In this document: positions 7,436 to 50,050 of the stretch, piece after piece
Position numbering within the stretch: position 1 is the stretch's first letter
Layout: each line of letters opens with the position of its first letter
NCBI RefSeq assembly: GCF_000024185.1
Contig: NC_013790.1
Coordinates: forward strand, 2,865,613-2,929,612
Direction: 5' to 3'
DNA: 64,000 nt
From: Methanobrevibacter ruminantium M1
GTDB lineage: Archaea; Methanobacteriota; Methanobacteria; Methanobacteriales; Methanobacteriaceae
Notes under the pieces: model-generated
What the model saw: the letters and a program-made list of their open reading frames with translations, nothing else
Told to the model about the DNA's origin: nothing
The model's database searches: none
Translations under genes and position numbers: made by a program

Positions 7436-10400
7436 ATGAGTATTAAACGAATATTACTTACGAGTTTAATGCTATTTATAATAATATTTTCAATTTCGTT
7501 TGTAAGTGCAAATGAAAATGTAACAAATGACGTAAGTACGAATGAACTATCAACACAAACTGTATCAAACGATATAACTACTAGTGAAAGTATAAGCGAT
7601 ACTAGTCTAGACTCTGGAGAAAACCGGGGTTTGGATGAGATCAAATCGAATTCGACAGAAGAGTCATCATCATCCAATTTGGACCTTGAGGATGGCACTT
7701 TAAATAACGATGAAATTGAAAGTGATGATTGTTTAACTAAAAATGGAAAAGAAGCAACATTGCAAGCAAATAAACTTAGTCTTGACATTAATATGAGTAG
7801 AGGTACAGCCCAAGATGTACTGGACGCAATCGTACGAATTTCCAGTCAAGGGGGAGGTACACTCTATCTGAATGGTGGAACCTATACTGAAGGAGGCCAT
7901 GCCAGAGTTTATAATAATGACACTGATAGTTTCCGTAATATCGTAAGGAACGATGGAATAGTAGACATTTCAAATGTTCGCGTAGTTGGTGGTAGCGTAG
8001 ACAATCCAAATCAATATGCTACATTTCAACCAAATACTCGTGATAGTACTTCATTGGCCTTTAGCGGTTACGGTGTTTGGGATGGTAATGGAACTAGATA
8101 TTACCCTGATTCCGGTTTTAATTTAACTAACGTTACTTTTGAAAATTTAAACTGTACAGGTAGATTCTTTAGTTTTAACAGCGGGTATTTGACAGATTGT
8201 GTTTTTAATAATCTGGAGTCCTATCAGCACCTCTTCTTCGTAACTGGAGCTTACAATGATGGTGGTAAGCCAATAGTACTAACTAATTGTAACTTCACCA
8301 ATTCCAAACAAACTTACAGGGGTGACGGCCCTGGGGATGGTACTGATGGTACCGGTCAGTTTGGTGTAGTATTCGGTGCTGAAATGTATGGATGTAACTT
8401 CATCAATACAAGCACTGCTACTCACGGTGGTGCTTTTTGTCTTTCAGACGAATGGATAAGTGCTGCATGCGTTCCAAGTAAGTTAGTTGATTGTAATTTT
8501 ATCAACATTACTTCTCGATGGTTTGCAGTTTACATACATGGAAATTACTCCAATACCACCAGATTTATTACAGAACCTCAAGTGGTGGAAAACTGTAGCT
8601 TTATTAATTGTACAGCAACCGGTGAATTTGGTGGTGCACTCGGAATAAGTCATAACAATGTAATTATAAATAACACTGAGTTTATCCATAACGTCGGTGG
8701 AAAAGGTTCCGCTATTATGGTTGGTGGAATCAATAATACTCATGACGGATTCTTGGGTGTTAATACGCAAGGTAATAATATTACGATTTATAATTGTACC
8801 TTTGAGGACAATATTGCAAAAATTGAAGGTCAAAGCAGTGCTCACAGTACTGATCCTCCATTCACTACTTACCCTACAGGTTATGGAGGTGCTGTTTATG
8901 TGTATGGTAATCATACCAAAATCATAGATAGTACATTTAACAACAACACTGCAGATGATTCTTGTGGTGCTGCAATCTACATTAGAGGTGACAATACCAC
9001 TGTCGTTAATTCTGAGTTCTATAACCATACCAGTGAAAACGGTACTATATATTTAGTTGGTAACGATTGTAAAATCAAAGATTCCCTTTTCCACGACAAC
9101 GATGCAGACTCTACTGGTGCTTGTATTTTCGTTGAAGGAAATAGGGCAGAAATCGGCAATACTACATTCGTCAACAACACCGCTCCTAATGGTGGATGTG
9201 TATTCATTATAGGTGACCATACCTTGGTAGACAATGACACCAAATTCATAACAAACAATGCTACAAACGGTGCAGGAATCTATGTTAACGGATCAAACAC
9301 CATGATTCTAAATACCAGCTTTATCAACAATACAGCTGTAAACGGATCAGGTGCATTCATCTATGGTCACGACACTGACGTAAACGGCTCTTACTTTGAA
9401 GGAAACGATGCTACAAACGGTGGAGCAGTATTCATTGAAGGAAACATCAACGATATTTCCAACAATACATTCCTCAGAAACAATGCTACCAATCAAGGTG
9501 GAGCAGTATATATTGACGGAAACCATACCAAAGTCAATTATAACAACTTCACAGAGAATGAAGCGATTCCAATTAGCGAAGATCAGGAAACCGGTCTCGG
9601 TGGAGCTATCTTCATAAGGGGAAACGATACAAATACAACTGCAAACACTTTCCTCCACAACAAGGCACGTAACGGATCTGCAATCTACACAGACGGAACT
9701 AACTTCTATCTTCACAATGATCATTTCTTAGAAAACCAAGCGTGGAGTTATCTGTTAATTACAACTGCAGACCCTGCAGAAAGCTTATATAAGGAACAAG
9801 ATATTGAAATCAACGTTTTATACAGAGCTGGAGACAATATTATCAATGCTATTCACAACAGGAACAAACCAAATGAAACACACTTCATGAATGTAACCTA
9901 TTCCCACAGTGAATTCGGTAATATCACAACTAGTCCTGCCGACCAGTATGTCGAACCTGTAGACGGCGTTGAAAACAGTCGAGAAGGAGAGTTATTGTAC
10001 CAAGACGACCGTGAAAACTATCAACAAATCGAACTCAGGGTAGAGCATGAAAATGGTGATTTAGCATTGCCAAGGACACCATTTAGAACCAACATCTACG
10101 GAAATGTTAACACTACCTTGAATAAATCTTCCTTAAGGAAAGGTTTATACGTTGTAGGGGCTGAGCACATTGAAGATTGGAACTATAAGTTCATTATGAA
10201 TTCTACAAGTTTCAGAATCCTTGATACAATGGACATAATGGTTAACAAAACCAGTGACAAGGAAGAATACTTCCAAGACGAAATAGCAGAATGGGAATTA
10301 ATTTTCCATAACACAGACAACGGTACTGACGCTGAAAACGTGACAATGACCGATCACTTGCCTAATGTATTTGAATTGATGAATCTCAGCTACATGTTCT

Positions 10401-13400
10401 ATACCCCAACAGAGGCAATTACAAATGCTACACTCTACTTAAACAATAATACCTTAAGATACGGAGTATATAACTCAAGCAGTCAGCAATGGGTCTACGG
10501 CGATGCAAGATATAATGCAAGCGCCAATAGTTGGACATATTATTTCTTTGACTATGACAATGTCACTTATGTCTACACTGAATTCAACGCTGATGACTTT
10601 GTACCTGTATTCGGACCTGTCATATACAGCAACAGCACTGATGTCTGCTATGACAACATCAGCTACAACATTCCTGAAGAGGACTGGTACTATGATACCA
10701 TCATGGTAAACGGTCAGGAAGTAAGATACGGTCATTTCAATGCAACAGAATTCGAACAATACTTCGGACCATCATACTATGATGAAGACAACAAGACTTG
10801 GGTTTGGATACATAGGGGAGAGGACCCATTGAATCCAGGCCAGGAAACTGATCTTCGCACTATCTATGATCCTGAGTCTAACATCTGGGTTATAGATGAT
10901 TATATGCACTATCCAGAGAGAAAGACAGTTACAGAAAAAGTCGTCTTTACCATTGTAAACGACACAGCAAACAATCTGACCCATCTTTCATTATACGCAA
11001 GAGACTTTGATGTAAACGTAACAGGTTACGTAAACTTCACAACAAACTGTACAAGATCAGGTGACTACACTAACGTTGTAAACGTTACAACCCCAGACTA
11101 TGACTGGGACTTGTCAAACAACGTAGCTAACAGATCTGTACTCGTCGACCCGCTTCCAAACAAGACAGTCAGCAACACAACTCCTTACTACCATGACTAT
11201 GTCGACTACAACTTGACAATCATGAACACAGGCAATTCAACCTACGACCAAATCCTAACCGTTGTAGACAGCTTGCCTGAAGGACTAGTCTACAATACAA
11301 CAGTAGGCATTTTATACGCTGACCAAATCGGCGAAACACTTGTGGAAAACCAAGGACGCACAGTTACCTGGAACGTTACAAACATTCCGGCAAATACCAA
11401 TGCAACCATAATTGTAAGGGTATATGTAGATGCTCTTGGAAACTTGACAAACAACATGACACTCATAGCTCCAAGCGGAGACAACAGAACCGTAAACGCT
11501 ACAATTACACCGGTAACCTATACCGATGTATCTGTTAACAAAACAGTCGAAAAAGAGGAATACTTCATAAACGACACTATAGTTTGGACCATAACCGTAT
11601 CCGTTGCAGGAAACGGTTCAAATGCAACAAACGTCAACCTTTCAGATGTATTGCCTCCTGAAGTCGAATATATTAGCACAAACGGTACATACGACAATGC
11701 AACCAATTCCTGGTACATCGGCAACATGACCAATGGAAGCAGCGTATCAATCACAATTGATACCCGGGCAATAAGAGTTGCAGAAAATGTTACCAACGTA
11801 GCAAACGTAAGCTGTAACGAAACCGAATGGGACTATGAAAACAACAGAGACAACGCAACAGTAAGCATTATTCCTGTTCCTCAGAAAACCGTCAACGAAA
11901 CAAATCCAACATTTGGCAAATACGTTGACTACAACCTAACAATAATCAACAATGGTGCAGAGCCATATACAGACACATTGACCGTTGTAGACAACTTGCC
12001 TGAAGGACTAGCCTACAATAACACCGTAAGCATTCTATATGCTGATCAAGTTGGCGACACAATTGTGGAAAACAATAACCGCACCATTACATGGTACGTT
12101 ACAAACATTCCTGCAAATACAAATGCAACAATAATTGTAAGGGTCTATGTAGGCATTCTTGGCGAACAGATAAACAACTACACTCTTATAGGTCCAAAAG
12201 GATCTAACAGAACTGTAAATGCTTCAATTGTTGTAGAACCAAAAGTTGACATATCAGTTGAAAAAACAAGCGACAAAATCAACTACTTTGAAGGCGAAAC
12301 CGTAATCTGGACCATTACTGTATCAAATGCAAACAATGCAACTCCAGCAACCAACGTAACCCTCAAAGACATCTTGCCAGAGGAAGTAGAATTTGTAAGT
12401 GCCAACGACACATACAGCAACGAAACCGGAATCTGGTACATCGGAGACATGGCAAACGGAACAAGCAGAACAATAGTAATTAATACTACTGCTATAAGAT
12501 CCAAAACAAATGTCACAAACGTAGCAAGCGTAAACTGTACTGAAAAAGAATGGAATTACACAAACAATGTTGACAATGCAACAATAAACATCTACCCATT
12601 GATTAACAAGACTGTAAGCAATTCTACCCCTGACTATGGAGATGAAGTTGAATACAACCTCACAGTGATAAACACTGGAGACGTAATGTTCAACGAAACT
12701 GTCACACTTGTGGACAGGCTCCCAGAAGGAGTCGACTTCATAAAAGTACTAAACGAAGATGGTTTAAAGGTAATAAGTTTCGACCACTCTACCAAAAACC
12801 TAACATGGGTTGTCACAAACATATCAGCTAACACAAAAGCAACCATAACCATCCTAGCAAATTGTACCTTGGTCGGTCTCCAAGAAAACACCTGGACCAT
12901 CTACGGACCAGAGGGCATGAACAGAACAGTTAACGCAACAATCGTAGTAGGACCAAAAGTAGACGTATCAGTTGAAAAAACAAGCGACAAAATCAACTAC
13001 TTCGAAGGGGAAACAGTCATTTGGACCATAACCGTGCACAATGCAAACAATGGAACAAACGCAACAAACGTGACCCTTAAAGACATATTACCAGAAGAAG
13101 TCTTATACGTTAGCTCAAATGGTACATACAACAATAATACCGGAATCTGGTACATAGGCAACATGACCAATGGATCAAGCAGAACAATCGTGATCAACAC
13201 CACTGCAATAAAATCCAAAGCAAATGTAACAAACGTGGCAAACGTAAGCTGTAATGAAACCGAATGGAACTACACAAACAATGTAGACGATGCTGTAATC
13301 AACATCTATCCATTAATCAACAAGACCGTAAGCAATCCAACCCCAGACTATCACGAAGAGATTGAATACAACCTCACCGTGGAAAACACTGGAGACATAA

Positions 13401-16400
13401 TGTTCAACGAAACCGTTACACTCGTCGACAGGCTCCCAATAGGAGTTGACTTCATAAAAGTAGTGAACGTAACCGGTTTAAAGGTAATAAGTTTCGATAA
13501 CACTACCAAAAACCTAACCTGGAACGTAACAAACATAACAGCACATACAAAAGCAACTATAACAATACTTGCAGTATGTAATGCTATTGGAGTCCAAGAC
13601 AACACTTGGACAATCTACGGACCAGAAGGTATGAACAGAACCGTAAACGCTACAATCGAAGTAAAACCAATAGTGGACGTGTCAATTACAAAGGTAGCCG
13701 ACCAAGAAATATACCACATAGGCGACAACGTAACCTGGATCATTACTGTGCACAATGCATGGAACGGAACCAACGCAACCAACGTCAACGTCAACGACAT
13801 ATTACCAAAAGAAGTCGAATACCTAACCCACACAGTTACACAAGGTCAATACAACAACAGAACCGGAATCTGGACTATAGGATTCATGGCAAACGGAACA
13901 AGTCAGACACTCACAATAGTATCCGTCGCAAAAATCAACAAAACCGACATAACCAATGTCGCAAACGTAAGTTGCAGCGAAAAAGAATGGAACTATTCAA
14001 ACAACAGAGACTACGCAACAATAGAAATTGTTGACACTCCAATCAACAAGACTGCAAGCAAACCGGTCCCAGACTACCACGAAGAGATCGAATACTACTT
14101 GACAGTCACAAACCTAGCAAATGAAACCTATAACAAAACCGTGACACTAGTGGACAGCCTACCAGAAGGAGTCACATTCCTTAGAGTGGTAAACGAAACC
14201 GGCTTAAGAGTACTAGGCTTCGAAAGACGTGGCAATCACCAAATCTGGAACGTCACAGACATCGAACCAAACACAACCGCAGTAATTACCATACTAGCAA
14301 GATGTGACGCAGTCGGAACAAAAATCAACAACTGGACAATCTACTACCCTAACGGAGACAGCGAAACCGTAAACGCAACAATCGAGGTAAAACCAATAGT
14401 GGACGTGTCAATTACAAAGGTAGCCGACCAAGAAATATACCACATAGGCGACAACGTAACCTGGATCATTACTGTGCACAATGCATGGAACGGAACCAAC
14501 GCAACCAACGTTAACGTCAACGACATATTACCAAAAGAAGTCGAATACCTAACCCACACAGTTACACAAGGTCAATACAACAACAGAACCGGAATCTGGA
14601 CTATAGGATTCATGGCAAACGGAACAAGTCAGACACTCACAATAGTATCCGTCGCAAAAATCAACAAAACCGACATAACCAATGTCGCAAACGTAAGCTG
14701 CAGCGAAAAAGAATGGAACTATTCAAACAACAGAGACAACGCAACAATAGAAATTGTTGACACTCCAATCAACAAGACTGCAAGCAAACCGGTCCCAGAC
14801 TACCACGAAGAGATCGAATACTACTTGACAGTCACAAACCTAGCAAATGAAACCTATAACAAAACCGTGACACTAGTGGACAGCCTACCAGAAGGAGTCA
14901 CATTCCTTAGAGTGGTAAACACAAGCGGCTTAAGAGTGCTAAGCTTCAACAGCACTGAAAAAGTCCAAACCTGGACCGTAACAGACATCGAAGCAAACAC
15001 AACCGCAGTAATTACCATACTAGCAAGATGTGACGCAGTCGGAATAGAAATCAACAACTGGACAATCTACTACCCTAACGGAGACAGCAAAAAAGTAGAA
15101 ACTCCAATCGATGTACAGCCAATAGTTGACTTGTCAACTACAAAAACCAGCAATAAGGACGTATACTTCCTAGACGACACAGCAGTCTGGACCATTACCG
15201 TCCACAATGCATGGAATGGAACCAACGCAACAAATGTCGTCATAGACGAATTGTTCCCAAGTGAATTTGAAATCATCAACTACACAACAACAAAAGGAAG
15301 ATACGATCCTAGCGCACGTGCATGGACAATTGATTTCATGGAAAATGGCACAACAGAAACATTGGTAATCACCTCAGTTGCAACAGTGGTTACACCATTC
15401 GTTGACAACCCTGTAAATGTAACAAGCGATGAAAGGGATTGGAACCTATCCAACAACCCATCCAATAAGTCTGTAAAAGTCATAGACATTCCAGATCCAG
15501 AAAAAACCGTGAACAATGCAACTCCTTACTACAATGATACCGTTGTATACAGCTTGACTATCAAAAACACTGGAGACATTAAATACACTAACAAGTTAAC
15601 AGTTATTGATAGCATGCCACAAGGATTGGAATATGTCAAAACCGTTGGTATAAGTGGTGCTAAGTTAATCAAGGAAGTTGTTAAAGGACAAGTGATCACT
15701 TGGACAATTACCAATATCTCTGCACACTCAAATGCAGTGATAAAAGTAAGAGTCAGAGCAAAAGCACTTGGAAACCTAACCAACAACTTGACCATTGTAA
15801 CTCCACATGCAAACAAGACTGTAAACTGTACCATTACTCCAGTACCTATTGCTGACTTAGCAGTCACAAAAACAAATGACCATTATGGCAAAGACTGCCT
15901 TAACAGCACATTTGTATACTGGACTATAAAAGTTGTAAACTACGGCCCTAACACCGCAGTGAATGCAATCGCAAAAGACATCTTACCTGAAGGAATAATC
16001 TACCTTTCAGATGATTCTGACGGAGCATACGATTACGAAACTGGAATCTGGACAATAGGAAACCTTGCAAAAGGCAAATCTGTAACAATGACCATAGAAA
16101 CAATTGTTGACGCTATCGACACAAGAATCAACAACAAAGTGGTCGTCTCATCAGACACCTACGATCCGGACAAATCCAACAACCGTGACAACAGCTCTAT
16201 AAAAGTCATTTCAATCGCTGACTTGAAACTCACCAAGACAGCTAACGTGACCAAAACTTATGTAGGAGAAAACTTCACTTACACTATTACCGTTGTCAAC
16301 CTTGGTCCTGATACAGCAGTAAACTCTCGTGTATACGACGTATTGCCAAAAGGAGTGAAACTCCTAAGCTTCAACGAAAGCAAAGGAAGTTACAACCCTC

Positions 16401-16675
16401 AAACAGGCAAATGGGCCATCGGAGACATGGCATTAGGTGAAGAAGTAACCCTTAAAGTAAACGTCAGAGCATTAACAACTGGAAAAATTGTTAACGAAGC
16501 ACGCGTCGAAAGTGACACTTACGACAACGACACTTCAAACAACAATGACTCAGCAACTGTAATCGTGATCGGAGACAATCCTCCAATCAAGATGCTACCT
16601 ACAGGTAATCCAATACTAATTGCACTCTTGTCATTACTTGCAATTGTTGGCGTAACACTTAGAAGGAAAAGTTAA
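7436..16675 (+). CDS. Giant adhesin-like surface protein
   Basis: 3079 residues. A signal peptide (1-25, ending SFVSA) and an acidic Ser/Thr-rich segment lead to a right-handed beta-helix region (about 115-780) built of GGAVYI-G-N and NxTF-NN repeats. After a tyrosine-rich region (about 990-1180) come more than a dozen DUF11/CARDB-like beta-sandwich repeats of ~120 residues that alternate in two types. The C-terminus has MLPTGNP, a hydrophobic segment and RRKS, which resembles a sorting or membrane-anchor signal. NxT/NxS sites are very dense. Such adhesin-like proteins are a hallmark of gut Methanobrevibacter and probably mediate contact with other cells or surfaces. The start has GAGGAA eight bases upstream. 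The binding target cannot be read from sequence. Confidence 0.9.
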   Translation: MSIKRILLTSLMLFIIIFSISFVSANENVTNDVSTNELSTQTVSNDITTSESISDTSLDSGENRGLDEIKSNSTEESSSSNLDLEDGTLNNDEIESDDCLTKNGKEATLQANKLSLDINMSRGTAQDVLDAIVRISSQGGGTLYLNGGTYTEGGHARVYNNDTDSFRNIVRNDGIVDISNVRVVGGSVDNPNQYATFQPNTRDSTSLAFSGYGVWDGNGTRYYPDSGFNLTNVTFENLNCTGRFFSFNSGYLTDCVFNNLESYQHLFFVTGAYNDGGKPIVLTNCNFTNSKQTYRGDGPGDGTDGTGQFGVVFGAEMYGCNFINTSTATHGGAFCLSDEWISAACVPSKLVDCNFINITSRWFAVYIHGNYSNTTRFITEPQVVENCSFINCTATGEFGGALGISHNNVIINNTEFIHNVGGKGSAIMVGGINNTHDGFLGVNTQGNNITIYNCTFEDNIAKIEGQSSAHSTDPPFTTYPTGYGGAVYVYGNHTKIIDSTFNNNTADDSCGAAIYIRGDNTTVVNSEFYNHTSENGTIYLVGNDCKIKDSLFHDNDADSTGACIFVEGNRAEIGNTTFVNNTAPNGGCVFIIGDHTLVDNDTKFITNNATNGAGIYVNGSNTMILNTSFINNTAVNGSGAFIYGHDTDVNGSYFEGNDATNGGAVFIEGNINDISNNTFLRNNATNQGGAVYIDGNHTKVNYNNFTENEAIPISEDQETGLGGAIFIRGNDTNTTANTFLHNKARNGSAIYTDGTNFYLHNDHFLENQAWSYLLITTADPAESLYKEQDIEINVLYRAGDNIINAIHNRNKPNETHFMNVTYSHSEFGNITTSPADQYVEPVDGVENSREGELLYQDDRENYQQIELRVEHENGDLALPRTPFRTNIYGNVNTTLNKSSLRKGLYVVGAEHIEDWNYKFIMNSTSFRILDTMDIMVNKTSDKEEYFQDEIAEWELIFHNTDNGTDAENVTMTDHLPNVFELMNLSYMFYTPTEAITNATLYLNNNTLRYGVYNSSSQQWVYGDARYNASANSWTYYFFDYDNVTYVYTEFNADDFVPVFGPVIYSNSTDVCYDNISYNIPEEDWYYDTIMVNGQEVRYGHFNATEFEQYFGPSYYDEDNKTWVWIHRGEDPLNPGQETDLRTIYDPESNIWVIDDYMHYPERKTVTEKVVFTIVNDTANNLTHLSLYARDFDVNVTGYVNFTTNCTRSGDYTNVVNVTTPDYDWDLSNNVANRSVLVDPLPNKTVSNTTPYYHDYVDYNLTIMNTGNSTYDQILTVVDSLPEGLVYNTTVGILYADQIGETLVENQGRTVTWNVTNIPANTNATIIVRVYVDALGNLTNNMTLIAPSGDNRTVNATITPVTYTDVSVNKTVEKEEYFINDTIVWTITVSVAGNGSNATNVNLSDVLPPEVEYISTNGTYDNATNSWYIGNMTNGSSVSITIDTRAIRVAENVTNVANVSCNETEWDYENNRDNATVSIIPVPQKTVNETNPTFGKYVDYNLTIINNGAEPYTDTLTVVDNLPEGLAYNNTVSILYADQVGDTIVENNNRTITWYVTNIPANTNATIIVRVYVGILGEQINNYTLIGPKGSNRTVNASIVVEPKVDISVEKTSDKINYFEGETVIWTITVSNANNATPATNVTLKDILPEEVEFVSANDTYSNETGIWYIGDMANGTSRTIVINTTAIRSKTNVTNVASVNCTEKEWNYTNNVDNATINIYPLINKTVSNSTPDYGDEVEYNLTVINTGDVMFNETVTLVDRLPEGVDFIKVLNEDGLKVISFDHSTKNLTWVVTNISANTKATITILANCTLVGLQENTWTIYGPEGMNRTVNATIVVGPKVDVSVEKTSDKINYFEGETVIWTITVHNANNGTNATNVTLKDILPEEVLYVSSNGTYNNNTGIWYIGNMTNGSSRTIVINTTAIKSKANVTNVANVSCNETEWNYTNNVDDAVINIYPLINKTVSNPTPDYHEEIEYNLTVENTGDIMFNETVTLVDRLPIGVDFIKVVNVTGLKVISFDNTTKNLTWNVTNITAHTKATITILAVCNAIGVQDNTWTIYGPEGMNRTVNATIEVKPIVDVSITKVADQEIYHIGDNVTWIITVHNAWNGTNATNVNVNDILPKEVEYLTHTVTQGQYNNRTGIWTIGFMANGTSQTLTIVSVAKINKTDITNVANVSCSEKEWNYSNNRDYATIEIVDTPINKTASKPVPDYHEEIEYYLTVTNLANETYNKTVTLVDSLPEGVTFLRVVNETGLRVLGFERRGNHQIWNVTDIEPNTTAVITILARCDAVGTKINNWTIYYPNGDSETVNATIEVKPIVDVSITKVADQEIYHIGDNVTWIITVHNAWNGTNATNVNVNDILPKEVEYLTHTVTQGQYNNRTGIWTIGFMANGTSQTLTIVSVAKINKTDITNVANVSCSEKEWNYSNNRDNATIEIVDTPINKTASKPVPDYHEEIEYYLTVTNLANETYNKTVTLVDSLPEGVTFLRVVNTSGLRVLSFNSTEKVQTWTVTDIEANTTAVITILARCDAVGIEINNWTIYYPNGDSKKVETPIDVQPIVDLSTTKTSNKDVYFLDDTAVWTITVHNAWNGTNATNVVIDELFPSEFEIINYTTTKGRYDPSARAWTIDFMENGTTETLVITSVATVVTPFVDNPVNVTSDERDWNLSNNPSNKSVKVIDIPDPEKTVNNATPYYNDTVVYSLTIKNTGDIKYTNKLTVIDSMPQGLEYVKTVGISGAKLIKEVVKGQVITWTITNISAHSNAVIKVRVRAKALGNLTNNLTIVTPHANKTVNCTITPVPIADLAVTKTNDHYGKDCLNSTFVYWTIKVVNYGPNTAVNAIAKDILPEGIIYLSDDSDGAYDYETGIWTIGNLAKGKSVTMTIETIVDAIDTRINNKVVVSSDTYDPDKSNNRDNSSIKVISIADLKLTKTANVTKTYVGENFTYTITVVNLGPDTAVNSRVYDVLPKGVKLLSFNESKGSYNPQTGKWAIGDMALGEEVTLKVNVRALTTGKIVNEARVESDTYDNDTSNNNDSATVIVIGDNPPIKMLPTGNPILIALLSLLAIVGVTLRRKS
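13661..14916 (+). repeat. 726 bp nearly identical tandem duplication inside the adhesin gene
   Basis: Bases from about 13661 to 14190 recur at 14387-14916 with only a few changes (offset exactly 726 bp, 242 codons). The unit is one pair of DUF11-like domains. Other domain pairs in the gene are clearly more diverged, so this duplication or gene conversion is recent and keeps the frame. Confidence 0.9.
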
Positions 16676-43315: not shown

Positions 43316-44176
43316 TTATTGTATGAAAAATTTTGAGTCATTATTAGCAACTATTTTGCAACAATCCTTATTAATACTAAAAAAATTCATACAGGCATGA
43401 TGAATGGACAAAACAGTGTCTTGGAACTCGTCATCATCTTCCAAATATGAAATTTTTAGGCCTAATTCTTGACAATCTTTAGCTGATAAATGTCTGCCAT
43501 GACTTTTCGTATTTTCATGAGAGCCTAATTCTAATCTTATTTTATTAATTTTTTCCTCATCCGACCCATCAAACATAGCATATCTTAAAGATTTATCTAA
43601 AATTTCATCAGACCATTTTCTTGCATTTTCACAAAGAATAATAAATGCAGGAGGATATTTTGAAATATTAGTCTGCCAAAAGGGAATGGTTTCTGGCTTT
43701 TCAGAAATTTCATTTTTAGCCCTATAAAACTCTTTAATAACTATCTCAGCAGGAATGCCATTAAATTGAGGATCAATAGGGCCCAAACTAGATTGTTTAC
43801 CCATAATTATTTCTTTTGATGAGCATGCAATCATAGTCCCTCCAGACATGGCAATTTGAGGTATAATAACTCTAATATCTCCATTAAAAACCTCATACAA
43901 ATAATCTATTATAGATTCTGTAGCCCCTACATCTCCTCCGGGAGCATGTAATATTAAATCAAGGCCATTATTCTTATCTAATCCCTTAATTAAATTCATA
44001 AAAGCATTTTTATCTAAATCATTGATTCCAAAATCCTTAAAACTATCTTGAAAGTTTAACCAACCAGAATAATAAACAATTACATTACGATTGGAAATTT
44101 TAAATAATTTGTTAATATATTTTGAAATAATTATTTGAGGCTCAAGTTCATTCTTTAGTTCAAAAAAACTAGGTAT
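43316..44176 (-). CDS. Serine dehydrogenase-type proteinase (ClpP/crotonase fold), start codon reads ATA
   Basis: The coding similarity covers 286 codons. It includes SNRNVIVYYSGWLNFQ, LDLILHAPGGD (about 73-82), the presumed catalytic serine in QIAMSGGTMIA (Ser111) and SSLGPIDPQ, typical of the SDH/SppA-like membrane-associated serine proteinase family. The first ATG in frame is at 43999, inside the domain. The 59 codons before it are clearly coding (PQIIISKYINKLFK matches the copy at 44367-44507), but they begin with ATA at 44176-44174, where that copy has ATG; no GTG or TTG is in frame. AGGTGA lies four bases before the ATA. The gene may be weakly translated from ATA, truncated, or silenced. 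It follows a small-protein gene by seven bases. Confidence 0.7.
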   Translation of the reverse strand: MPSFFELKNELEPQIIISKYINKLFKISNRNVIVYYSGWLNFQDSFKDFGINDLDKNAFMNLIKGLDKNNGLDLILHAPGGDVGATESIIDYLYEVFNGDIRVIIPQIAMSGGTMIACSSKEIIMGKQSSLGPIDPQFNGIPAEIVIKEFYRAKNEISEKPETIPFWQTNISKYPPAFIILCENARKWSDEILDKSLRYAMFDGSDEEKINKIRLELGSHENTKSHGRHLSAKDCQELGLKISYLEDDDEFQDTVLSIHHACMNFFSINKDCCKIVANNDSKFFIQ

Positions 44177-44183
44177 AAGTCAC

Positions 44184-44321
44184 CTATACTTTCAAAGGTA
44201 TCCAATGCATTAGGTCATACTTTGGAAAAAAATCGAACTCCTCATCTCCTTTATCTTTTTTTGGACGATAATAAGGGATTCCAAGATCTCTATATAATCT
44301 CTTTACATAAGATTCGTTCAT
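44184..44321 (-). CDS. 45-residue small protein, copy 1, before the proteinase gene
   Basis: ATG at 44321 with GAGGTGAT five bases upstream, TAG at 44184-44186. The product aligns without gaps to the two other small proteins at 44507 and 44791: M-N/K-E-S at 1-4, aromatic at 10, basic at 11, Pro16 and aromatic-D-F-F at 29-32 (here FDFF). It is charged, with no membrane segment or signal peptide. It sits immediately before the proteinase reading frame, so the two are probably translationally linked. I know no family for it. A role as regulator, adaptor or substrate of the proteinase is a guess from position. Confidence 0.7.
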   Translation of the reverse strand: MNESYVKRLYRDLGIPYYRPKKDKGDEEFDFFPKYDLMHWIPLKV

Positions 44322-44366
44322 TTTTATCACCTCATTAAATTCTACAGCCATATTACTAAGATTTTT

Positions 44367-44507
44367 TTAAATGGGATTGAAAAAACAATATCTGAAATCA
44401 AACCAAGGAGAAATATTAGTTAAATTATACAGTTTCTTAATATATTTAGAAATAATTGTTTGAGGCTTTATCTCGTCTCTAATTTCTTTTAAATCAGGCA
44501 TAATCAT
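44367..44507 (-). pseudogene. Remnant of a second proteinase copy, N-terminus only
   Basis: 46 codons from ATG at 44507. PDLKEIRDEIKPQTIISKYI matches the first residues of the neighbouring proteinase (ELKNELEPQIIISKYINK); after KKLYN the similarity ends, and the frame stops at 44367. The ATG overlaps the stop of the upstream small gene as TGATG, showing the ancestral translational coupling of small protein and proteinase. A second in-frame ATG at 44501 matches the ATA of copy 1. Confidence 0.65.
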
Positions 44508-44644
44508 CAAACATCTATAGGTTTTAAAGATAAATTTTTTGACCTTTTAAAAAAATCATACTCATTTTCTCTATTGTAACCCTTATGAATTTTATGAGGT
44601 AATTGGAAATCCTTATATGACTTCCTTATATCGGATTCATTCAA
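44507..44644 (-). CDS. 45-residue small protein, copy 2, TTG start
   Basis: TTG at 44644 preceded by GAGGTGAT at normal spacing; TGA at 44507-44509. It has the same length as copy 1 and aligns without gaps: NES at 2-4, YKD at 10-12, P16, YDFF at 29-32 and LSLKPIDV at the end. Basic and polar, without membrane segment. Its stop overlaps the start of the proteinase remnant. The intact start region and open frame suggest it is still made although its proteinase partner has been lost. Confidence 0.65.
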   Translation of the reverse strand: MNESDIRKSYKDFQLPHKIHKGYNRENEYDFFKRSKNLSLKPIDV

Positions 44645-44739
44645 ATTATCACCTCTTAAAAAGAAAAAATTCTACAGTCAATTTACAAAATATGTATGGC
44701 TAAAAATTTAAATTAGCCCATGTAATTCTCAATTTTTTC

Positions 44740-44785
44740 GTTAATTGAAAATATTTTCTTTTCTAATTTCTTAAAAGTCTGCTAT
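44740..44785 (-). pseudogene. Remnant of a third proteinase start
   Basis: Just after the third small gene, ATA GCA GAC TTT TAA GAA ATT AGA (minus strand, from about 44783) aligns with ATG CCT GAT TTA AAA GAA ATT AGA of copy 2. It has an in-frame stop at codon 5 and further stops. Similarity is short but is in the same place relative to the small gene. Confidence 0.45.
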
Positions 44786-44790
44786 AGAAT

Positions 44791-44925
44791 CTAATCTAAG
44801 AATTTTAAAGACAAATGTTTAGAACCTTTAAAAAAATCGTATTGTTCTTCCCTCTTTTCAAAATAAATTTTTCTTTTAGGAACAAAAGGGTATCTAAAAA
44901 CTTCTAGATTTTTAGATTCTTTCAT
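44791..44925 (-). CDS. 44-residue small protein, copy 3
   Basis: ATG at 44925 with GAGGTGA at normal spacing; TAG at 44791-44793. It aligns without gaps to copies 1 and 2: MKES at 1-4, FR at 10-11, P16, QYDFF at 28-32 and HLSLKFLD at the end, where copy 2 has NLSLKPIDV. Lys/Glu-rich. It is the first gene of the leftward array; a TATA box lies at 45021-45030 and two palindromes lie upstream of it. No known family. Confidence 0.65.
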   Translation of the reverse strand: MKESKNLEVFRYPFVPKRKIYFEKREEQYDFFKGSKHLSLKFLD

Positions 44926-45020
44926 TATCTCACCTCTTTAATAAAATTCATCTATCGAATATAAAATCTATTTTTAATTTACTTTTAAATAATATATTTA
45001 TTTAATTATTGAATATCCTA

Positions 45021-45030
45021 TTATATAAAG
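45021..45030 (-). promoter_or_regulatory. TATA box of the small-protein/proteinase array
   Basis: On the minus strand CTTTATATAA, about 95 bases before the first small gene. A transcript would start near 44995. The first palindrome lies about 20 bp upstream of it. Confidence 0.45.
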
Positions 45031-45050
45031 TTTGTTGAAAAAAATAAGTA

Positions 45051-45123
45051 GTTTACAATGGTAAACTATACATTAAAGGAAGTAGAATGTTTTAAAAGAT
45101 AAAAATGGTTTACAATGGTAAAC
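45051..45123. promoter_or_regulatory. Pair of identical 16 bp palindromic operators
   Basis: GTTTACAATGGTAAAC occurs at 45051-45066 and again at 45108-45123, 57 bp apart. Each has perfect 6 bp arms GTTTAC/GTAAAC and the same AATG centre. A perfect repeat of a palindrome upstream of a TATA box is typical of a dimeric regulator binding two sites. It lies between the leftward small-protein array and a decayed rightward gene. Confidence 0.6.
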
Positions 45124-45356: not shown

Positions 45357-45752
45357 ATGTTTAAGATAAGAAAATTATCCAATAAAATTATAGTTTTGCT
45401 TATATGCGGGCTATTGATCTGTAGCATACAGGCCTGCTCGGCCTCATGCACTGCAGTCTATGTAGGGCCTGATGTCAGTGCAGACGGTTCAACAATCATT
45501 GCAAGATGCAACGACCATCAGGGAGTTTGGGGAAACCATATCACAGTGACCCCAAGGGTAGAGAACAAGTCAAGCCGTCTTATGGCTGTATGCGAAGATG
45601 GAAGCGTAAAAACAGAGCTTCCGGCAACAACTTACAAATACACAGCCACACCATATATGAACAGCACAAAAGCATGAAAAAGAGCAGTTATACCGCCATT
45701 GAATGTGACTCTAGATGCATCAAAGTATAAGAATGTCCCTGCAGTGCCTTAG
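45357..45752 (+). pseudogene. Truncated C69/choloylglycine hydrolase-like peptidase
   Basis: A signal peptide (to about residue 29) is followed by SCTAVYVGPDVSADGSTIIA and RCNDHQGVWGNH, the start of the C69 dipeptidase / Ntn-hydrolase fold with its N-terminal nucleophile Cys. The frame hits an in-frame TGA at 45675 after 106 residues. It then stays open for KRAVIPPLNVTLDASKYKNV up to TAG at 45750-45752. Family members have 400 or more residues, so most of the catalytic domain is deleted. AGAGGGACC precedes the start. Confidence 0.7.
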
Positions 45753-48757: not shown

Positions 48758-49717
48758 CTAAAGAGCTTCTTTAACCATGGTTTCTAATATTTCAATCAAT
48801 ATGTCATCATCACAGATTGGTTCTGGATATAAGATTTCTCCATCGAACTCCATCTTTTCATCCCCATGGGCATGATGATGGTGATGATGTCCGTGAGAGT
48901 GTCCGTGATCATGGTCATGTCCGTGGTCGTGACTGTGGTCATGGTCGTGATCATGATGGTGATGGTGATGATGTCCGCTACCATCATCCTCAATAAGGCC
49001 TAATATTGTCGGAATGTCCCTTGTTGTATGAACGCCCGGAGCAATGAATACAGGGACTACAATTAATCTGTCAACTTCATTTTCGCTTACAAGCTTGTTA
49101 ATTGTAGTTGGAATGTTAGGATCTACAAGTTCCATGAATGCAAAGTCACATACATAATCGGTTTGTTCTTCAAACTGTTGGAATACGCATGAAATGAACT
49201 CTTTATTGTAGTTTAATCTGCTTCCATGGGATACAAGTAAGACTGCTGTCTTTGCATCATCATCTAGCTTGGAATCTTCAAGAGCTGTGTCTATTCTGTT
49301 GTTTATGATTTCAATAAGTCTTGGATTAGGGCCTATTGCATCGATAAGTTTTAATTCTCCATCGAAATCAACCTCTTCAAGGCCATAGAGATAGTGGCCT
49401 TCTGGGTAATTGCCGTCAGGCTGTCTTGGGTCGGTTTCCTTAGGCTCAAGGCCTAATATTATAGGAATGTCGATGTTTGTATGAATTCCAGGGGCTAAAA
49501 ATACGGGAGTTGCTATGATTCTTTTTAGACCTGGGTTTCTTTCCTTTAAGATATTTATTGCCTCAGGGAGGCTTGGCTTAGCCACTTTCATATAGCCTAC
49601 TTCAGCGTCAAATTCAGTCTGTTCCTTAAATTTAGCGCATATGTCCTTAAAAACTTCTTCTGCATAAGGGAGACTACTTCCATGACTTAATAATAAAACA
49701 GCAGTATCTTCACTCAT
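48758..49717 (-). CDS. Two-domain CbiX/CfbA-type sirohydrochlorin chelatase with His-rich linker
   Basis: About 319 residues, two homologous chelatase domains. Each has its own catalytic-type histidine (LLLSHGSSLPYAEE and LLVSHGSRLNYNKE) and a metal-site loop (PVFLAPGIHTNIDIP and PVFIAPGVHTTRDIP). Near the end a run of about 35 His, Asp and Gly residues (HHHHHHHDHDHDHSHDHG and so on) is inserted, probably holding nickel or cobalt. The family inserts cobalt (cobamides) or nickel (coenzyme F430) into sirohydrochlorin. Short CfbA is about half as long and works as a dimer, so this fused form may do so in one chain. I prefer ATG 49717, with GTGATT as ribosome binding site, over the GTG at 49726. 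Confidence 0.83.
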   Translation of the reverse strand: MSEDTAVLLLSHGSSLPYAEEVFKDICAKFKEQTEFDAEVGYMKVAKPSLPEAINILKERNPGLKRIIATPVFLAPGIHTNIDIPIILGLEPKETDPRQPDGNYPEGHYLYGLEEVDFDGELKLIDAIGPNPRLIEIINNRIDTALEDSKLDDDAKTAVLLVSHGSRLNYNKEFISCVFQQFEEQTDYVCDFAFMELVDPNIPTTINKLVSENEVDRLIVVPVFIAPGVHTTRDIPTILGLIEDDGSGHHHHHHHDHDHDHSHDHGHDHDHGHSHGHHHHHHAHGDEKMEFDGEILYPEPICDDDILIEILETMVKEAL

Positions 49718-50050
49718 AATAATCACATAATAGTTAATGTGTTACAACTTGGTTAAAGTTAATAATATCTTGACTTAAGGGCTAATTTTCAATTTACCGA
49801 TTGGTTATTTAAATAAATATTATTTGTCTAAAGCATAAATTTTTACAATCAGAAAACTTAATAAAATTAAATTTAAGTCAATAAAATATAAAATTTTTTG
49901 TTAAATTTCTTTTATACTATTAATTATAGCTTTATTATTAATAAACTTTGTTAATAATTAGTTAAATTAAATTAAAAGTATTAAAATTAAAGTAAAAATT
50001 TTAAAATTAGTAATAACTTTTTTTAAAAAAGTATTAAAATAAATGCAAAA
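49718..50050. other. Gap without gene
   Basis: Very AT-rich sequence between the chelatase start and the terminator of the DUF35 gene. It must hold the chelatase promoter. I see no gene or distinct repeat. Confidence 0.6.

What the first reader, a model, noticed from the sequence alone, without database searches (positions are those of the whole stretch)
44184..45123. Triplicated cassette of a tiny protein and a serine proteinase
Three genes for 44-45 residue proteins align without a single gap (MNES/MKES start, Pro16, aromatic-DFF at 29-32). Each is directly followed by the start of a serine-dehydrogenase-type proteinase: one full-length, one of 46 codons, one only a few codons. In copy 2 the small gene stop overlaps the next start (TGATG). 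The small genes keep open frames and good ribosome binding sites while two of the three proteinases have decayed, so the small protein may have value on its own, for example as inhibitor, adaptor or immunity-like partner. I know no named family that fits. The pairing and triplication are seen; the functional link is inference.
Basis: partly seen in the sequence, partly recalled or inferred. Interest (0 to 1): 0.85.

Follow-up and report, generated by a model that had tools for sequence, protein, structure and literature searches.

The report
Undescribed small partner of ClpP-like protease
Three tiny archaeal genes next to a ClpP-like protease gene belong to a hitherto unnamed family of 40-75 residue proteins that sits beside this protease in many bacteria, archaea and phages, which suggests an ancient two-part protease system whose small part probably controls the protease.

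Summary
The three gap-free 44-45 codon genes are real. Copy A precedes a near-complete ClpP-like (SDH-type) proteinase gene; copy B precedes a 3'-truncated remnant; the copy C remnant is not significant. The 'full-length' proteinase has ATA where relatives have ATG and no canonical in-frame start before codon 60. The main result lies beyond the finding: the small protein is not an oddity. Profiles from six independent two-sequence seeds recruited only segments adjacent to this proteinase, none elsewhere among 25,244 six-frame segments. Of 144 distinct proteinase loci, 91 have a profile-supported small gene, usually upstream and often overlapping, sometimes downstream, once on the other strand. 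Many of the rest carry another small ORF there. No Pfam, NCBIfam or PHROG family covers it. It evolves as protein (dN/dS about 0.2) but faster than its proteinase. The module is in prophages (including E. coli Nissle 1917), phages and plasmids, and at several loci beside defence genes. I propose a small trans-acting regulator, most likely an inhibitor or antidote, of a ClpP-type effector protease. Pairing is shown; function is inferred. A fused AlphaFold model did not support docking.

The parts
44184..44321 (-). small partner gene A, 45 aa, stop included
   Evidence: homologues beside proteinase genes; SD GAGGTGAT at 44326-44333
43316..44176 (-). ClpP-like SDH-type serine proteinase A, 286 codons; codon 1 is ATA (44174-44176), no ATG/GTG/TTG in frame before 43999; putative nucleophile Ser (MSGGT motif) at about 43844-43846
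   Evidence: PF01972 E 2e-22, phrog_11747 E 2e-82, start-codon table, Ser aligned to the ClpP AASMG motif
44507..44644 (-). small partner gene B, 45 aa, TTG start, stop overlaps the next ATG (TGATG)
   Evidence: SD GAGGTGAT at 44648-44655
44367..44507 (-). proteinase remnant B: about 30 codons homologous to proteinase A, then truncated
   Evidence: 46% identity; 0 of 1000 shuffles
44791..44925 (-). small partner gene C, 44 aa
   Evidence: SD GAGGTGAG at 44929-44936
44740..44790 (-). possible proteinase remnant C, with stops; not significant
   Evidence: 10% of shuffles score as well
45051..45066 (.). 16-bp palindrome GTTTACAATGGTAAAC, operator-like, upstream of the cassettes
   Evidence: this pattern occurs at two places in the genome, both here
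45108..45123 (.). second copy of the same palindrome

Best explanation
The locus holds diverged tandem cassettes of a two-gene module: a small fast-evolving protein plus a cytosolic ClpP-fold serine protease. The small protein is a trans-acting partner dedicated to this protease family. It is usually translated just before the protease, and at many loci its gene overlaps the protease start, so partner and protease can be made together. I think it most likely binds the protease and keeps it inactive or correctly assembled until a trigger such as phage infection or prophage induction, in the manner of an antidote; the protease is then the effector. In this genome two cassettes have lost the protease but kept the small gene, and the third may be translated poorly from AUA. 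Shown: the pairing, protein-level constraint, the absence from family libraries, the ClpP-like fold, and presence on phages and plasmids and beside some defence genes. Inferred: binding, inhibition, trigger.
For: Linkage: six independent two-sequence seeds recruited 99 upstream, 6 downstream and 1 opposite-strand segments, all beside the proteinase, and 0 elsewhere among 25,244. Of 144 distinct proteinase loci, 91 have a profile-supported small gene. Held-out plasmids: an unannotated small ORF in an Enterobacter plasmid scores E 2.6e-21 and one in a Pseudomonas plasmid 2.1e-37; the E. coli Nissle 1917 prophage 'hypothetical' upstream of the proteinase scores 3e-22 in a single-sequence search. 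A trans role, not a cis leader, is indicated by downstream and opposite-strand placements. Eight Methanobrevibacter proteinases without an upstream partner each have a 33-45 aa ORF with a ribosome-binding site directly downstream. Protein-level selection: dN/dS 0.17 and 0.23 for two small-gene pairs. Window small A versus L037 is 38% identical while the proteinases are 68%. Fold: ClpP is the best match. Context: BrxL, type III methyltransferase, GmrSD/HEC-06, Hhe-type helicase, MADS and TmtA next to the module at several loci; phages and plasmids; a Nissle prophage between Q and the holin.
Against: No binding or inhibition has been tested. In a fused AlphaFold model the small part was less confident than alone and gave no sign of docking, although only a monomer and few paired rows were used. 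Defence association is by example, from long neighbouring ORFs that I chose, without a background control. In the window itself the neighbours look like ordinary genes. The small proteins fall into several groups; the 'burk' group is not significantly alike to the others, and the basic downstream ORFs may be a different family.
Confidence: 0.42

Rival explanations
1. The small protein is an adaptor or activator that docks on the ClpP-like protease and delivers or selects substrates, as ATPase partners or adaptors do for ClpP.
For: Tight pairing; the helix motif I-x-x-x-[FY]-x-x-L-G-L ends in an LGL/LGI-type tripeptide that recalls, from memory only, the IGF/LGF docking motif of Clp ATPases; no ATPase is regularly next door.
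Against: Fast divergence relative to the protease and kept copies after protease loss fit an adaptor less well; the LG motif may be just a helix cap.
Confidence: 0.27
2. The small protein is the dedicated substrate or precursor: the protease cleaves it to release a peptide signal or active peptide.
For: Small, little confident structure beyond the first helices, variable C-terminal half, beside its protease.
Against: No secretion signal or common cleavage site noticed; extra copies without protease would be idle unless cut in trans.
Confidence: 0.13
3. The small ORF acts only in cis, as a leader or translational coupler that tunes protease translation.
For: Frequent overlap of small stop and protease start (gaps -29 to +1).
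Against: Downstream placement in several loci and opposite strand in L217; dN/dS about 0.2; 45-75 aa is long for a leader.
Confidence: 0.06
4. The copies in the window are decaying remains of a mobile module without present function in this archaeon.
For: Proteinase A lacks a canonical start, B is truncated, C is gone; patchy distribution (16 of 152 genomes of the phylum sample, 4 of 20 genera).
Against: All three small ORFs stay open with strong ribosome sites; in a substitution-only simulation on one branch 2-3% of ORFs would stay open at this divergence; proteinase A keeps its conserved motifs over 286 codons and dN/dS 0.2 against L037. ATA in place of ATG also occurs in L045 and L079.
Confidence: 0.12

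Closest known systems
SDH-type ClpP-like serine proteinase (PF01972; NCBIfam NF047768 Clp_like_SDH; phrog_11747)
   Same: Proteinase A matches PF01972 above cut-off and phrog_11747 with E 2e-82; NCBI names the E. coli Nissle 1917 relative 'SDH family Clp fold serine proteinase'.
   Different: The window protein scores 91 bits against the 250-bit NF047768 cut-off. The family descriptions returned do not mention a small partner.
ClpP peptidase (e.g. 1y7o, 8xop) and 1510-N/NfeD protease (3viv)
   Same: Predicted fold resembles them, and the Ser-containing MS(G/A)GT motif aligns to the ClpP AASMG motif.
   Different: About 12-19% identity; no ATPase partner found regularly next door; extra helices.
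Toxin-antitoxin-like defence proteins with small inhibitors (RpnL/RpnS, PMC10327210; Sofic with a short neighbouring protein, PMC12249575; abstracts only)
   Same: A small protein paired with a potentially toxic effector found in phage conflicts.
   Different: Different effectors (nuclease, Fic AMPylase); no toxicity or inhibition is shown here; no sequence relation was tested.

Membership tests
PF01972 SDH_protease (proteinase A) | Score above the Pfam gathering cut-off | tested here: met
   79.9 bits vs 31.3
NF047768 Clp_like_SDH equivalog (proteinase A) | Score above the NCBIfam cut-off | tested here: not met
   91.2 bits vs 250
ClpP-like serine peptidase fold | ClpP fold and conserved Ser motif | tested here: met
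   Foldseek ClpP E 5e-4, prob 1.00 on the L146 model; Ser aligned to the ClpP Ser motif
ClpP-like serine peptidase fold | Proteolytic activity | not testable with these tools
   needs an enzyme assay
Known small-protein family (any Pfam, NCBIfam, PHROG) | Consistent match of several members to one model | tested here: not met
   57 members scanned; only single weak matches
Small partner family described here | Genome adjacency to the SDH-type proteinase | tested here: met
   window small A groups with L037 and others
Toxin-antitoxin system | Effector toxic alone, neutralised by the partner | not testable with these tools
   no experiment
Toxin-antitoxin system | Two adjacent coupled genes on mobile elements or in defence islands | tested here: met
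   no background control for the defence part
Known anti-phage defence system | Match to a PADLOC model | tested here: not met
   no match for the proteinase or small A

The most novel reading that the evidence does not exclude
A widespread, undescribed antidote-effector system of phage conflict in which the effector is a ClpP-type protease working without its own ATPase and the antidote is a tiny, rapidly diverging protein, shared by archaea, bacteria and phages.
Probability: 0.33. Interest if true: 0.87.

Novelty: new variant of a known kind. Interest (0 to 1): 0.68.

Why it matters
A protease family that databases list as a single gene turns out to come, in most loci examined, with a tiny partner that is often unannotated or called hypothetical. 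That gives an uncharacterised protease family a first testable mechanism, and gives experimenters a tractable copy in an E. coli Nissle 1917 prophage.

Tried and rejected
Rejected: chance similarity of the three ORFs (homologues elsewhere). Rejected: small protein as a split-off N-terminus of the proteinase; in relatives the genes are separate, overlap in another frame or swap order. Rejected: 'solo' proteinases in Methanobrevibacter; they have small ORFs directly downstream. Considered: a 1-base insertion after GTG in proteinase A; the alignment to MPSF starts and ATA in L045 and L079 make an ATA start equally good. Led nowhere: the narrow profile in 139 genomes and profile A11 in 152 genomes (which also missed the known copies, so it is uninformative); small-protein scans of viral contigs; a wider palindrome pattern was not enriched (8 vs 13 in the control). 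Papers: nine searches of the open-access library found no description of this pairing; most subscription papers were not searchable.

Full report
Observation. The window lies in a single-contig genome of 2,937,203 bases; the size and the large adhesin-like ORFs suggest Methanobrevibacter ruminantium M1, which is my inference. Three small minus-strand ORFs, A (44184-44321), B (44507-44644) and C (44791-44925), align without gaps with invariant M1, E3, S4, P16 and DFF at 30-32. Each has a near-perfect ribosome-binding site. Their profile finds no further copy in this genome. Pairwise identity is 25-39%, so the copies are old. Proteinase A (43316-44176) matches PF01972 and phrog_11747. The B remnant is significant; the C remnant is not.

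A caveat on 'full-length'. In relatives the proteinase starts with MPSF or MPNW. At that codon the window has ATA. Of 69 aligned starts, 60 are ATG, 3 ATA, 3 TTG, 1 GTG and 2 other. No ATG, GTG or TTG occurs in frame before position 43999. Either AUA initiates behind the AGGTGA site or the copy is poorly or not translated.

Homologues. The narrow three-copy profile found nothing reliable outside this genome. The proteinase led to relatives: 21 of 139 genomes of the family hold one. Directly upstream of six of them lie 45-50 codon ORFs of the same build, for example MDDLTIDKVKELYDALGISPKSNELNEKSFFNTDEKDEHLAWKSLEV in L037. Scans of genome and viral contigs gave 80 and 73 proteinase loci from many bacterial and archaeal phyla and viral contigs, and most have a small ORF at the same place.

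Linkage test. A profile seeded with the Methanobrevibacter small proteins recruited 52 small ORFs from the upstream set and six of 6,392 decoys. Five of these six proved to lie directly beside the proteinase on its strand, upstream or downstream, and the sixth (L217) lies just downstream on the other strand. Six separate two-sequence seeds were then iterated against 25,244 six-frame segments. They gained 99 upstream, 6 downstream and 1 opposite-strand neighbour and not one distant segment. The search set consists of proteinase loci with flanks, so this measures position within loci, not the absence of lone small genes elsewhere. After collapsing near-identical proteinases, 91 of 144 loci have a profile-supported partner. 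Of the other 53, 36 have a small ORF with a ribosome site beside the proteinase, found by a looser rule that has no chance control. Eight seemingly solo Methanobrevibacter proteinases have a 33-45 aa ORF with a ribosome site just downstream. Whether those are homologous to the upstream partners is open. Profile comparison links the LGL, KCCS, Methanobrevibacter and rhizobial-phage groups (pairwise E 3e-4 to 3e-5), the Bacteroidetes group weakly (E 1.6e-3), and the Burkholderia-type group not. Records not used for training agree: an unannotated small ORF in an Enterobacter plasmid, one in a Pseudomonas plasmid, and the hypothetical gene before the proteinase in an E. coli Nissle 1917 prophage. 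Two further plasmids also have a small gene there, outside the profiles.

Not in the libraries. Fifty-seven members scanned against Pfam, NCBIfam and PHROGs gave only single weak matches. Nine paper searches found no account of the pairing.

Selection. Small-gene pairs show dN/dS 0.17 (L100/L118) and 0.23 (Nissle/L258). Between window A and L037 the small proteins are 38% identical and the proteinases 68%. In a simple substitution-only simulation 2-3% of ORFs would stay open at the A/B/C divergence. The small genes therefore evolved as proteins. How long B and C have lived without a proteinase cannot be dated.

Structure. The proteinase part of a fused L146 model is confident (about 90 or more over most of it, pTM 0.83) and resembles ClpP and the 1510-N protease. 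The conserved Ser of MSGGT aligns with the Ser motif of ClpP. The small protein alone has a confident first helix and little else. In the fusion its confidence did not rise, so there is no structural support for docking; a monomer with eight paired rows is a weak test.

Context. Long ORFs beside the module include BrxL (L105), a type III methyltransferase (L137), GmrSD/HEC-06 proteins (L073, L080), an Hhe-type helicase (L134), MADS-like (L120) and TmtA-like (L095) proteins. These were chosen for length and no background was run. The module is on phages of Porphyromonas, Shewanella and Gordonia, on plasmids, and in a Nissle 1917 prophage between antiterminator Q and the holin. In the window the nearest neighbours look like ordinary genes. 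Two copies of the palindrome GTTTACAATGGTAAAC, found nowhere else in the genome, lie upstream of the cassettes.

Interpretation. The pairing, the usual order small-before-protease, the frequent overlap, the downstream exceptions, the protein-level constraint and the faster divergence of the small partner fit a trans-acting partner better than a leader peptide or chance. Among partner roles I favour an inhibitor or antidote, because the small gene usually comes first, diverges fast, remains as extra copies where proteases are lost, and the module keeps company with phages and defence genes. An adaptor is a serious rival. No experiment or structure decides.

Noticed in passing
window 45051-45066 and 45108-45123: Two identical 16-bp palindromes GTTTACAATGGTAAAC upstream of the cassettes, the only places in the genome with this pattern; a possible operator.
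   Followed up: partly
L039-L044, L047, L048, directly downstream of the proteinase: Small ORFs, mostly basic (e.g. MDERRCRYYEKVFKEDNPMRLSPYERSRPYKEGKRGTLTNK), with strong ribosome sites; perhaps a second partner type.
   Followed up: partly
window 44174-44176; L045 and L079 at the same codon: ATA in place of ATG at the proteinase start; possible AUA initiation for low expression.
   Followed up: partly
L051 and L053 downstream of distant proteinases: Two similar 52-aa ORFs (KPQTxILKKHYxY motif) directly downstream of proteinases only about 25% identical to the window one.
   Followed up: no
window 45357-45677: Secreted-looking truncated ORF resembling the start of a C69-type dipeptidase; looks like a gene fragment (recalled resemblance, not tested).
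   Followed up: no
window 48758-49726: CbiX-like ORF (recalled, not tested) with a long His/Asp-rich stretch, probably metal-binding.
   Followed up: no
window 7436-16675: 3,079-aa adhesin-like ORF with repeated domains.
   Followed up: no
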